Source: Scytonema millei VB511283
GTDB taxonomy: Bacteria > Cyanobacteriota > Cyanobacteriia > Cyanobacteriales > Chroococcidiopsidaceae
Length of the DNA stretch: 64,000 nucleotides
Assembly (NCBI RefSeq): GCF_000817735.3
Contig: NZ_JTJC03000001.1
Coordinates: 381,710-445,709 of the forward strand
Reading direction: 5' to 3'
Part shown: one piece after another, positions 2,471 through 60,475 of the stretch
Position numbering within the stretch: the first letter of the stretch is position 1
How the letters are laid out: every line of letters starts with the position of its first letter
Program-made: the position numbers and the translations under genes
The notes under the pieces: model-generated
Databases searched by the model: none
Told to the model about the DNA's origin: nothing
Seen by the model: the letters and a program-made list of their open reading frames with translations, nothing else

Positions 2471-3061
2471 AGCTTCCTCAGCTCTCTTTCCCCCGACTCC
2501 CGACCCCGCCATTTGCCGAAATTCAGCCGGGGTTTGCCGCATTGGTTGTTTCACATCCCACACGCCACGCCCGATAATTCTTGCCCAGGCTTGCGCTTTT
2601 TCCAAGCGATCGTCATACTTCCGATCGCGCGATCGCCCATCCCACAAAACGTATCCCTCTTTTAGGAGTTGCTCGTTCAACAATTTGCCATTTTGCCACA
2701 CATAAGCCCACTGTCGCTCAAATTTATCTGGCTGTCCGTCAAGTTCTAAGGTAACTGTCTTCCCGTTGACCATTGCTTCTAACTGCTGTTTAGCTGCTTG
2801 TCCCCAAGGCTGTTGCTGGAGATCTGGGGCTTCAATTCCCGAAAGTCTCACCTTGAAAGCCTCCCCTCTACTTATCGCTTCTAGAGTTTGTCCGCTGACT
2901 ACACGCACAACCTGCGCTTGCATTCCGTTATCGATCGCACGAGACTGACAACCCTGAATAAACAAGAGTGGGAGAAAAAGAAGGGAGACAAGGAAGACAC
3001 GGGAGAAACTACTACTCACTAACTGATAACTGATAACTGATAACTGATGACTATTCTTCAT
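2432..3061 (-). CDS. Thermonuclease (SNase)-like lipoprotein with degenerate metal site
   Basis: From the ATG at 3059-3061 the product is 209 residues. A hydrophobic segment (VFLVSLLFLPLLFIQGC) ends in a lipobox with cysteine, predicting a lipid-anchored exported protein. The rest follows the staphylococcal nuclease fold: VVRVVSGQTLEA, VRLSGIEAPD, WGQAAKQQLE, DKFERQWAYVW, LLNEQLLKEGYV, GRGVWD. The usual acidic DGDT calcium motif reads SGQT and the usual D-x-P-E reads E-A-P-D, while the two catalytic arginines are kept. Activity may therefore be weak or lost. The start overlaps the end of the ferredoxin gene by 11 bases. Residues 5-14 (HQLSVISYQL) are encoded by a TTATCAG tandem repeat, and the tail by another repeat. 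Confidence 0.75.
   Translation of the reverse strand: MKNSHQLSVISYQLVSSSFSRVFLVSLLFLPLLFIQGCQSRAIDNGMQAQVVRVVSGQTLEAISRGEAFKVRLSGIEAPDLQQQPWGQAAKQQLEAMVNGKTVTLELDGQPDKFERQWAYVWQNGKLLNEQLLKEGYVLWDGRSRDRKYDDRLEKAQAWARIIGRGVWDVKQPMRQTPAEFRQMAGSGVGGKRAEEAEGEKNQPTTVNR
3021..3050. repeat. TGATAAC tandem heptamer repeat inside coding sequence
   Basis: Four consecutive copies of a TGATAAC-type heptamer. Read on the minus strand they form codons 5-14 of the nuclease-like lipoprotein, just upstream of its signal peptide core. Confidence 0.8.
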
Positions 3062-58085: not shown

Positions 58086-59039
58086 ATGACAAGGGGAAAA
58101 AGAACTCAAGCCGCAGAACTGGAAGTCCGGTTGCTGCGGGAAGGAATCGTTGAATCGATCCATCACGTCCAAGCAGTTGTATGTGACAACCGAGGACGGG
58201 TTTTATCTGTGGCTGGCAATGCGGAAACAGCAACTTTCGTGCGTTCTGCTCTCAAGCCATTTCAAGCACTAGGCGTGACAACAACAGGCACTTTAGAACG
58301 CTACAATCTCACAGATAGAGATTTAGCGATTATTTGTAGTTCGCACAAAGCCGCGATCGCCCAAGTGCGACAAGTCTTTAATATTCTTTGGCGAGCAGAT
58401 ATCGATCCCTCGGCATTGCAATGTCCCACACCTGCGGGCAAGCGCAGCCCCCTAGAATACAATTGTTCTGGCAAACATGCGGGAATGTTAGCGGTATGCC
58501 AGCAACGCCGCTGGGCGCTCAATAGCTATCTCCAACGCAACCATCCCGTACAGCAGTTAATTCTAACTAAAGTAGCTGAAATGCTACGGATGCCAGCCGA
58601 AGAGTTTATTTGCGCTCACGATGATTGCGGTGCGCCTACCTATTTCATGCAGTTGGGACAAATGGCAGCTTTATACGCCCAGCTTGCTTCTGGTAGCAGC
58701 TTGGATCTGGAACGGATCGTCCGTGCTATGACCTATCATCCCACCTTAATTGCAGGGGAAGGAGAATTCGACACGGAAATTATGCGTCTGACGCAAGGGG
58801 AACTCGTCAGTAAGGCGGGTGCAGAAGGCGTGCAGTGTATTGGTAGAGTCGGCGAGGGCATGGGATTGGCAATCAAGGCGATTGATGGCTCTAAACGCGC
58901 TAAACACGCTGTAGCAATTCACTTGCTCAAGCAAATGGGTTGGCTCAGTCCCTCAGCCGCAGAAACTCTCGCTGAAAGCTTTATGGAGTTTGGTAAATTC
59001 AAGCGCTTAGAAGTTTTAGGAGAATTGTCGCTGTTATAG
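58086..59039 (+). CDS. L-asparaginase II family protein
   Basis: 317 residues of the plant/cyanobacterial asparaginase II type. FVRSALKPFQALGVTTTG, CSSHKAAIAQVRQVF, CPTPAGKRSPLEYNCSGKHAGMLA and DDCGAPTYFMQLGQMA are characteristic, and VSKAGAEGVQCIGRVGEGMGLAIK is the conserved end. It hydrolyses L-Asn to L-Asp and ammonia. An asparagine synthetase gene lies at the right end of the window, but not in one operon. Confidence 0.9.
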   Translation: MTRGKRTQAAELEVRLLREGIVESIHHVQAVVCDNRGRVLSVAGNAETATFVRSALKPFQALGVTTTGTLERYNLTDRDLAIICSSHKAAIAQVRQVFNILWRADIDPSALQCPTPAGKRSPLEYNCSGKHAGMLAVCQQRRWALNSYLQRNHPVQQLILTKVAEMLRMPAEEFICAHDDCGAPTYFMQLGQMAALYAQLASGSSLDLERIVRAMTYHPTLIAGEGEFDTEIMRLTQGELVSKAGAEGVQCIGRVGEGMGLAIKAIDGSKRAKHAVAIHLLKQMGWLSPSAAETLAESFMEFGKFKRLEVLGELSLL

Positions 59040-59080: not shown

Positions 59081-59415
59081 CGCGGGATAGAGCAGCCTGG
59101 TAGCTCGTCGGGCTCAACAGGCAAGGTTAATTAAGTGCTTAGGAGTTAACCTTGTTATGGGCGGTACGTAAAGAAATTTGCGTGCGTTTACCTGTCAAAT
59201 TCGGGGAAACCTTTAGCGCGGTAATCCCGAACCAAGCTCTCGCAAGAGAGAAGGTGTAGAGACTGGAAGGCAGGCATCCTAACGTTAAGTCGAGGATGAA
59301 GGGACAGTCCAGACCACAAACTGGTTAACTCAAAGTTAGTTAACTTAGGCAGCGAAAGCTGTAGATGGTAAGCATAACCCGAAGGTCAGTGGTTCAAATC
59401 CACTTCCCGCCACCA
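59081..59415 (+). tRNA. trnfM: tRNA-fMet (CAT) interrupted by a group I intron
   Basis: The 5' exon (59081-59114) and 3' exon (59373-59415) join to an initiator tRNA with anticodon CAT. D-arm AGCAGCCTGGTAGCTC, anticodon stem GTCGGGCT with CATAACCCGAAGG, T-arm GTGGTTCAAATCCAC, and CCA encoded. C1 faces C72, keeping the unpaired first position of initiators. The exon junction is after U33. Confidence 0.95.
59115..59372 (+). ncRNA. Group I intron (258 nt, no ORF) in tRNA-fMet
   Basis: Intron bounds follow from restoring a perfect tRNA, with U before the 5' splice site and G at the intron end. The core elements resemble subgroup IC3: ATTCGGGGAAACC with GGTAATCCCGAACCAAGC (P/Q region), and GTGTAGAGACTGG with GGGACAGTCCAG (R/S, forming P7). 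The tRNA-fMet intron of Synechocystis carries the endonuclease gene inside; here the intron is too short for that. Confidence 0.9.
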
Positions 59416-59426
59416 AATTAAAAGAT

Positions 59427-59464
59427 AAAACCCTGCAATATAAGAAGTTGCAGGGTTTTGTTTT
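59427..59464 (+). terminator. Strong intrinsic terminator after tRNA-fMet
   Basis: AAAACCCTGCAA (59427-59438) pairs with TTGCAGGGTTTT (59448-59459), loop of nine bases, then a T-rich tail. Confidence 0.9.
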
Positions 59465-59494
59465 ATGCTGTTGGAGCAGCTAGAAATTATTTAA

Positions 59495-60022
59495 ATGGAT
59501 ACCAAGCTAAAAGGAGACATAGCAGAACAAGCAGCAGTTTTTCATGCTTTAAAACGAGGCTGGGGAGTTTTAAAACCTATTGGCGATCGGTTGCCATACG
59601 ATCTAGTGTTTGATGTTAGTGGAGTTTTGATTAAAATTCAAGTTAAATATGCCTGGTTTGACACGCCTTCAGGCAATTACGTTGTAGATAATCGTCGGAC
59701 AAAGACAAATCGAAGACTGATGCTTAGAGAAGCGTACAAGCAATCAGACTTTGATTTTGCTCTAGCCTATATAGAAAACCTTGACCTGTTTTATGTCTTT
59801 CCAGTAGATATATTTATTGGATATGGCAGCGAAATCCATTTAGTTGAAGCTGAGAAACGACAGAGAAAACCTCGTTCTACAAATTATCGCGATGCTTGGA
59901 AGTTAATATTACAGAAAGTTTTGCAATATGAAGCTGATGCGCAATCTCCTATCTCAGGTGAGGAAGCTGTTGTTAGTGAGATAGCGCCATTTGGAGTTCC
60001 CACTAATGAAATTTTTCTATGA
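59495..60022 (+). CDS. I-Ssp6803I-like PD-(D/E)XK homing endonuclease, encoded outside the intron
   Basis: The 175-residue protein matches, as I recall its sequence, I-Ssp6803I of Synechocystis. That enzyme is encoded within the tRNA-fMet intron and cuts intronless tRNA-fMet genes at the anticodon. Shared blocks are LKGDIAEQAA, RGWGVLKPIGDRLPYDLVFDV, GNYVVDNRRTKTNRR, FDFALAYIENLDLFYVFPVD and RQRKPRSTNYRDAWKLILQK. The likely nuclease core is YDLVFDV...IKIQVKY (Q-V-K in place of E-x-K, as in that enzyme). The gene starts about 80 bases downstream of the 3' exon and beyond the terminator. It has about 25 extra C-terminal residues. No second tRNA 3' exon follows. Confidence 0.88.
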   Translation: MDTKLKGDIAEQAAVFHALKRGWGVLKPIGDRLPYDLVFDVSGVLIKIQVKYAWFDTPSGNYVVDNRRTKTNRRLMLREAYKQSDFDFALAYIENLDLFYVFPVDIFIGYGSEIHLVEAEKRQRKPRSTNYRDAWKLILQKVLQYEADAQSPISGEEAVVSEIAPFGVPTNEIFL

Positions 60023-60178
60023 AAGGATATATTAATCGTGCCAAAAACACCTAATTGAGTTTTCGGAGTAAATATTTATAATAAATTCATATTTGCAATA
60101 GCTTTATACTCTAGCTATGAGTTCTTTTGTTATAAAGGGATTACTAAATAAAGTAAACCTTTACGAAGGAAATAGTTT

Positions 60179-60316
60179 ATGGCTAAAGAATCTAAAGAGT
60201 CAAAGAAAAATTCAGAACTAAAATGCCCAGTTCCAAAAGACTTCAGGGATAAAATAAATGAAGTCGGAGATGTAATTGTTCTCTTGAAATCCTTGAGGAA
60301 AATTCGATCGCGCTAG
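60179..60316 (+). CDS. Small lysine-rich protein, possibly truncated
   Basis: 45 codons from the ATG at 60179, with GAAGGAAAT about 10 bases upstream as a good ribosome site. The product opens MAKESKESKKNSELKCP and continues DFRDKINEVGDVIVLLKSL. No family recognised. Its 3' end overlaps the broken end of a VOC gene on the other strand, so both may have been cut by the same rearrangement. Confidence 0.45.
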   Translation: MAKESKESKKNSELKCPVPKDFRDKINEVGDVIVLLKSLRKIRSR

Positions 60317-60475
60317 TTCGTTAGAAGCAAAAGCAAGTGTCGTTCCTCCCGTTTCCATCTCAGCATATTGTCCGCTTTCATGAATAAATCGTTGCTTTAA
60401 ATTGAAGGCACGTTCGTAAAATGCAACAGCATGGGTAACATCCTTAACATAGAGAATCGTGTAGGAGAATTTCAA
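60218..60475 (-). pseudogene. Truncated VOC (glyoxalase/bleomycin-resistance-like) family gene
   Basis: From a TTG at 60475, preceded by GAGGAGC, the frame encodes KFSYTILYVKDVTHAVAFYE, FNLKQRFIHESGQYAEMETG and FASNELARSNFPQGFQEN, a good VOC N-terminal half. After about residue 66 (near 60275) the sequence (YISDFIYFIPEVFWNWAF) no longer fits the family and stops early. The metal-binding C-terminal half is missing. Confidence 0.75.

What the first reader, a model, noticed from the sequence alone, without database searches (positions are those of the whole stretch)
59081..60022. tRNA-fMet group I intron with its homing endonuclease moved outside
In Synechocystis the I-Ssp6803I gene lies inside the tRNA-fMet intron. 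Here the intron is ORF-free (258 nt) and a clear relative starts 80 bases after the 3' exon, past a strong terminator. Either the gene moved out and still drives intron homing by co-conversion of flanking DNA, or this is the ancestral separate state before intron invasion.
Basis: partly seen in the sequence, partly recalled or inferred. Interest (0 to 1): 0.8.

Follow-up and report, generated by a model that had tools for sequence, protein, structure and literature searches.

The report
Intron's cutting enzyme moved next door
A DNA-cutting gene that normally sits inside a self-splicing intron of an essential bacterial tRNA gene here lies just beside that tRNA gene, and it still ends with a decayed copy of intron sequence, which shows it once lived inside the intron and probably now spreads the intron from outside.

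Summary
The single initiator-tRNA gene (59081-59415) carries an ORF-free 258-nt group I intron. A 175-aa relative of I-Ssp6803I (about 68% identical, E 5e-68, all four active-site residues) starts 79 bp after the tRNA, behind the tRNA's own terminator. This is no oddity: among 17 related cyanobacterial genomes with a full-length copy, 12 have it outside and 5 inside. The outside state also occurs in Bacteroidota. All 54 intact copies with a local tRNA-fMet have an interrupted one. None of 234 sampled genomes with an uninterrupted tRNA-fMet has a full-length copy; three hold remnants. Outside copies are under strong purifying selection (median dN/dS 0.09).

The C-terminal tails of cyanobacterial outside genes align, without gaps and in the same register, with the ribozyme core (P3-P4, at times P5) that inside copies read into. 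The gene was therefore once inside and moved out. Protein and intron trees both require several inside/outside switches. Most likely this is a two-part mobile element working by collaborative homing, known so far from two phage systems. Cleavage and co-conversion are inferred. In the window's lineage the gene may have arrived after the intron.

The parts
58086..59039 (+). L-asparaginase II gene, the conserved upstream neighbour of tRNA-fMet in cyanobacteria; used as a host marker
   Evidence: PF06089 388 bits; 44-57 bp upstream of the tRNA in most outside cyanobacterial loci
59081..59114 (+). tRNA-fMet 5' exon, ends at U33
59115..59372 (+). ORF-free group I intron, 258 nt, in the anticodon loop
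   Evidence: RF00028 56 bits; ARAGORN i(35,258)
59373..59415 (+). tRNA-fMet 3' exon; the only match to this 3' exon in the genome
59422..59465 (+). Rho-independent terminator of tRNA-fMet; belongs to the tRNA and is present in genomes without the ORF
   Evidence: -23.7 kcal/mol, z -7.6; seen in ORF-less relatives
59466..60273 (+). inserted segment carrying the endonuclease gene; replaces 182 bp of the sister genome G001, including the 3' end of a glyoxalase gene
59495..60022 (+). free-standing PD-(D/E)XK endonuclease gene (175 aa), I-Ssp6803I family; residues E11, D36, Q49, K51 present
59930..60011 (+). molecular fossil: C-terminal coding tail that aligns with the P3-P5 region of the intron core as read by inside copies (best partner L027)
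60218..60475 (-). glyoxalase gene truncated at its 3' end by the insertion
   Evidence: PF00903; full-length in G001, its stop codon next to the terminator

Best explanation
This is a two-part mobile element. An ORF-free group I intron interrupts the tRNA-fMet anticodon loop, and a free-standing homing endonuclease of the I-Ssp6803I family lies just past the tRNA terminator. The gene's ancestor lay inside the intron. It moved out with a piece of the ribozyme core attached, which is now a translated, decayed C-terminal tail (shown by sequence). The enzyme presumably cuts uninterrupted tRNA-fMet genes at the anticodon (inferred from the close homology, the intact active site and the unchanged target). 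Repair from a donor would copy intron, 3' exon, terminator and gene together (inferred). The intron protects its own carrier from the enzyme, which explains why an intact gene is never found with an uninterrupted tRNA-fMet (association shown, cause inferred). After the gene decays, the intron can persist alone and later be lost precisely (states shown; the order is inferred).
For: Homology and active site. All 17 genomes (14 genera) with full-length genes have the intron; 0 of 234 genomes with uninterrupted tRNA-fMet have one, Fisher p about 1e-14, not corrected for kinship. Intact loci: 54 with intron, 0 without; broken ones include 5 beside intronless tRNA-fMet. Median dN/dS 0.093 over 217 outside pairs. 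Outside genes lie on the same strand, median 84 bp 3' of the tRNA. Fossil tail: 15 of 20 matches at the homologous register against at most 7 at any other offset, p about 5e-5 by column permutation; window alone p 0.008, L046 0.009, L018 below 0.001. Protein and intron trees each need about 7 inside/outside changes; one outside clade rejected at p 0.015. Intact, decayed and lost states within genus g40.
Against: No cleavage, splicing or transfer data. In cyanobacterial outside loci the intron follows the host marker closely (r 0.73) and the endonuclease less so (r 0.41); the partial intron-endonuclease correlation is weak (0.23, p 0.027). Sister genome G001 has the same intron (91% identical, like its flanks) without the gene, so in this lineage the gene may have come separately. 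Fossil tails are not seen in the outside copies of Bacteroidota, so their direction is open. No clear promoter lies between terminator and gene.
Confidence: 0.68

Rival explanations
1. Ancestral separate state: a free-standing endonuclease and an ORF-free intron met at the same target, and inside copies arose later by invasion of the intron (the accepted route from phage work).
For: Distant PDDEXK_5 relatives are free-standing just 3' of tRNA-Arg(UCU) genes, and a phage relative is free-standing beside tRNA-Met. The root of the tRNA-fMet group is unresolved.
Against: Outside cyanobacterial genes end with intron-core sequence in the register of inside copies. An ancestor that had never been inside would have no reason to carry this.
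Confidence: 0.12
2. The intron is a vertically inherited resident and the endonuclease is an independent free-standing selfish gene (intronless-type homing) that survives only where the intron protects the host; the two do not move together.
For: Intron distance follows the host marker (r 0.73), the endonuclease less (0.41). G000 and G001 share the intron but not the gene. 33 of 50 intron-bearing genomes lack a full-length gene.
Against: If the site is protected by the intron, the gene cannot enter that allele by its own cutting. The gene is always at this one locus and never elsewhere. The partial intron-gene correlation remains.
Confidence: 0.25
3. The gene is domesticated or is a dead passenger with no homing role.
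For: It follows a strong terminator without an obvious promoter, and decayed copies exist.
Against: Median dN/dS 0.093, four active-site residues invariant in 56 intact copies, and strict dependence on the intron. A dead passenger would not show this.
Confidence: 0.1

Closest known systems
I-Ssp6803I / Synechocystis tRNA-fMet intron (PD-(D/E)XK homing endonuclease, PF11645, PDB 2OST)
   Same: Same protein family (about 68% identity), same catalytic residues, same intron insertion site, same tRNA target sequence around the anticodon
   Different: There the gene lies inside the intron (P1, with 61 nt overlapping P1/P2, PMC3073962); here it lies outside, past the terminator, and the intron has no ORF
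Collaborative (trans) homing in phages (free-standing HEase plus ORF-less intron at the same site; reviewed in PMC3984707)
   Same: Architecture: ORF-less intron, neighbouring free-standing endonuclease of the family whose known member targets the intron's own insertion site
   Different: Chromosomal and in a tRNA gene, widespread in cyanobacteria and in Bacteroidota; evidence that the gene left the intron, the reverse of the route proposed from phages; no functional data here
Homing cycle (invasion, degeneration, loss) of Goddard and Burt
   Same: Intact, decayed and lost states occur among close relatives (genus g40, G134, G001/G002)
   Different: Here it acts on two separable parts, and the external gene's remnant stays behind after precise intron loss
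T4-type free-standing homing endonucleases near tRNA genes (SegB)
   Same: Endonuclease gene beside tRNA genes
   Different: Different nuclease family, no intron, phage setting (comparison from general knowledge; SegB discussed in PMC13096335)

Membership tests
PD-(D/E)XK homing endonucleases of the I-Ssp6803I type | Sequence family PF11645 and close match to 2OST | tested here: met
   185 bits; E 5e-68
PD-(D/E)XK homing endonucleases of the I-Ssp6803I type | Catalytic residues E11, D36, Q49, K51 (identified from memory of the family) | tested here: met
   Present in the window and in all 56 intact copies
PD-(D/E)XK homing endonucleases of the I-Ssp6803I type | Cleaves the tRNA-fMet anticodon region of uninterrupted alleles | not testable with these tools
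   Needs purified protein
Intron-encoded homing endonuclease | Gene lies within the intron | tested here: not met
   Gene is 79 bp past the 3' exon
Group I intron of tRNA genes | Conserved core and anticodon-loop insertion with U before the 5' site and G at the intron end | tested here: met
   RF00028 hit; sequence at 59114 and 59372
Group I intron of tRNA genes | Self-splicing | not testable with these tools
   Only one match to the tRNA-fMet 3' exon in the genome, so splicing is presumably needed
Collaborative homing | Free-standing endonuclease gene next to an ORF-less intron | tested here: met
Collaborative homing | Endonuclease target equals the intron insertion site | not testable with these tools
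   Inferred from homology to I-Ssp6803I; joined exon sequence is the same as in inside-type relatives
Collaborative homing | Intron and endonuclease gene are co-inherited after cleavage | tested here: inconclusive
   Partial Mantel 0.23, p 0.027; G000/G001 differ in the gene only

The most novel reading that the evidence does not exclude
Homing endonucleases repeatedly leave group I introns and carry on as external partners of the emptied intron, so mobile introns can be made and unmade in both directions. The PDDEXK_5 family would then be a general guild of tRNA-anticodon-targeting nucleases (tRNA-fMet, tRNA-Arg(UCU)) that live just 3' of their target tRNA, with or without an intron as a shield.
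Probability: 0.45. Interest if true: 0.75.

Novelty: new variant of a known kind. Interest (0 to 1): 0.62.

Why it matters
The accepted story is that free-standing endonucleases invade ORF-free introns. Here a sequence fossil documents the reverse: the gene left the intron and kept a translated piece of the ribozyme. It also provides what appears to be a chromosomal, tRNA-based and widespread case of collaborative homing outside phages, in culturable cyanobacteria, with close relatives in every state (both parts, intron only, remnant only, neither). That makes the order of steps in the homing cycle directly testable. The textbook inside arrangement of Synechocystis turns out to be the minority state in its order.

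Tried and rejected
Single-copy freak of the window: rejected, dozens of cases. One origin of the outside state: rejected by AU test (p 0.015), though forced changes are fewer (3) in the protein tree. Rooting the tree with the tRNA-Arg paralogs: branch too long, direction not resolved; the fossil tail settled it instead for cyanobacteria. Unconstrained local alignment of single tails to the core: only L018 and L075 stand out; the fixed-register test was needed. L029 tail resembles the core by eye but is not significant. Tyrosine-integrase origin of the position: L036 and L049 lack the tRNA but keep its last bases plus the terminator beside an integrase-like gene, so they look like far ends of integrative elements, not a different class. 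Long gaps (0.8-2 kb) in some outside loci hold an unrelated inserted ORF or transposase-like genes. Plasmid collection: no relative. The original papers on I-Ssp6803I are largely out of reach: Zhao 2008 and Biniszkiewicz 1994 are not in the library, and Bonocora and Shub 2001 and Zhao 2007 did not turn up in any search, so an earlier remark on outside copies cannot be excluded.

Full report
OBSERVATION. The tRNA-fMet gene runs from 59081 to 59415 and is split after base 34 by a 258-nt group I intron. The only match to its 3' exon in the 5.97-Mb genome is this gene, so splicing is presumably essential. The ORF at 59495-60022 encodes 175 aa. It matches Pfam PDDEXK_5 over the whole length of the model and the solved homing endonuclease I-Ssp6803I (2OST) with E 5e-68 and about 68% identity. 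Between tRNA and ORF lies an 18-bp hairpin with a T-tract. Genomes without the ORF have it too, so it is the tRNA's terminator.

HOW COMMON. A scan of 84,980 species genomes gave 55 close relatives. ARAGORN with introns shows that nearly all lie either inside a 640-690-nt tRNA-fMet intron or just downstream of a tRNA-fMet. In the window's order, 293 genomes were sampled for three traits. 234 have an uninterrupted tRNA-fMet. 50 have a clear tRNA-fMet intron and no uninterrupted copy. 17 have a full-length or nearly full-length endonuclease, 12 outside and 5 inside; a few of these carry a stop or frameshift. All 17 belong to the intron group and none to the 234 (Fisher p about 1e-14, 14 genera). 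Outside genes are always on the same strand, median 84 bp after the tRNA. Counting distinct loci with a local tRNA-fMet, 54 intact genes go with an intron and 0 without; 5 of the broken ones sit beside an intronless tRNA-fMet. One of the 11 'broken with intron' entries in that table, L128, is merely cut by the end of the fetched stretch.

FUNCTIONAL STATE. E11, D36, Q49 and K51 are present in all 56 intact copies. Median dN/dS among outside genes is 0.093 (5-95%: 0.06-0.16). That is not a dead passenger.

DIRECTION. Inside copies often read through into the ribozyme core: the coding tail of L026, L027, L031, L032, L045 and L057 is a translation of P3-P4, in most also P5 (CCTGTCAAATTCGGGGAAGCC...GGTAATCCC). 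In Synechocystis such an overlap is known for P1/P2 (PMC3073962). The outside cyanobacterial genes have tails of the same length from a conserved Glu codon. In that register their consensus matches 15 of 20 core bases, against at most 7 at any other offset (0 of 20,000 column permutations reach this). Individual examples are L018 (CCTGTCTCATTCGGGGAAGC, 0 of 1000 shuffles), the window (p 0.008) and L046 (p 0.009, gapless over 85 nt, protein KFEEFLGDIIPIQAQ against KFGEACSEVIPSQAS). The simplest reading is that these genes were once inside an intron and moved out with a piece of the core. Outside copies in Bacteroidota have short tails without this mark, so their direction is open.

HOW OFTEN. 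The protein tree needs 7 inside/outside changes (at least 3 forced by well-supported branches), and a single outside clade is rejected (p 0.015). An independent intron tree also needs 7. One clear switch is L032 (inside) among L037 and L042 (outside), all of Bacteroidota, supported 98/93.

LIFE CYCLE. In genus g40, G121 and G252 have intron plus gene, while G089 and G296 have an uninterrupted tRNA with a gene remnant at the same place, so the intron was probably lost precisely. G134 has intron plus remnant. In the window's genus, G001 has the intron (91% identical) but no gene, and a full glyoxalase gene whose stop codon touches the terminator; G002 has neither intron nor gene. In the window, 808 bp with the endonuclease gene replace 182 bp, cutting off the glyoxalase 3' end. 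The left junction is the end of the terminator. So the gene arrived at this locus after the G000-G001 split, or G001 was restored by recombination.

CO-TRANSFER. With asparaginase as host marker in 28 outside loci, intron distances follow the host (r 0.73), the endonuclease less (0.41), and intron and endonuclease stay weakly correlated after removing the host effect (0.23, p 0.027). This fits occasional joint transfer on a mostly vertical intron, but is weak.

MECHANISM. Most likely: the enzyme cuts uninterrupted tRNA-fMet at the anticodon, and repair copies intron, 3' exon, terminator and gene. The intron shields the carrier. Shown: linkage, selection, direction of movement in cyanobacteria, states of the cycle. 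Inferred: cleavage, co-conversion, shielding.

COMPARISON. It is a member of the I-Ssp6803I protein family but not an intron-encoded one. It works like collaborative homing, described for two phage systems (PMC3984707). Nothing found in the open-access library reports the outside state in tRNA-fMet; the main older papers could not be read.

WIDER PATTERN. More distant PDDEXK_5 nucleases lie just 3' of tRNA-Arg(UCU) in five cyanobacteria (one a remnant) and in viral contigs; one viral tRNA-Arg(UCU) carries an intron. This suggests the family favours tRNA genes in general.

Noticed in passing
L083, L084, L085, L064, L200 (cyanobacterial genomes G293, G172, G105, G032, G052): Distant PDDEXK_5 proteins (about 217 aa, extra C-terminal helix-turn-helix-like part) start 50-90 bp downstream of an intronless tRNA-Arg(UCU), same strand; in G052 only a remnant. 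Unlike the tRNA-fMet type, intact genes occur with an uninterrupted tRNA.
   Followed up: partly
L192:2620-2923 and downstream ORF at 3001 (viral contig IMGVR_UViG_3300005805_006908): tRNA-Arg(UCU) with a 229-nt anticodon-loop intron and a PDDEXK_5 gene 77 bp downstream; intron matches the window intron's P7 region better than 500 shuffles but Rfam gives no hit at E 0.1.
   Followed up: partly
L190:2284-2782 (viral contig IMGVR_UViG_3300005936_001382): Intact free-standing relative (56% identical) whose stop codon overlaps an intronless tRNA-Met gene; a tRNA that ARAGORN reads with anticodon TTA lies just before it.
   Followed up: partly
L036 and L049, upstream of position 3001: Intact gene preceded by only the last bases of tRNA-fMet plus terminator, next to a divergent integrase-like gene: looks like the far end of an integrative element inserted in the tRNA-fMet 3' end.
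   Followed up: partly
L169, L170, L166 (G159, G049, G029): Other PDDEXK_5 genes inside or beside long tRNA arrays, two of them directly next to tRNA-Asp.
   Followed up: no
window 60179-60316: Small 45-aa ORF of unknown origin in the inserted segment between the endonuclease and the truncated glyoxalase gene.
   Followed up: no
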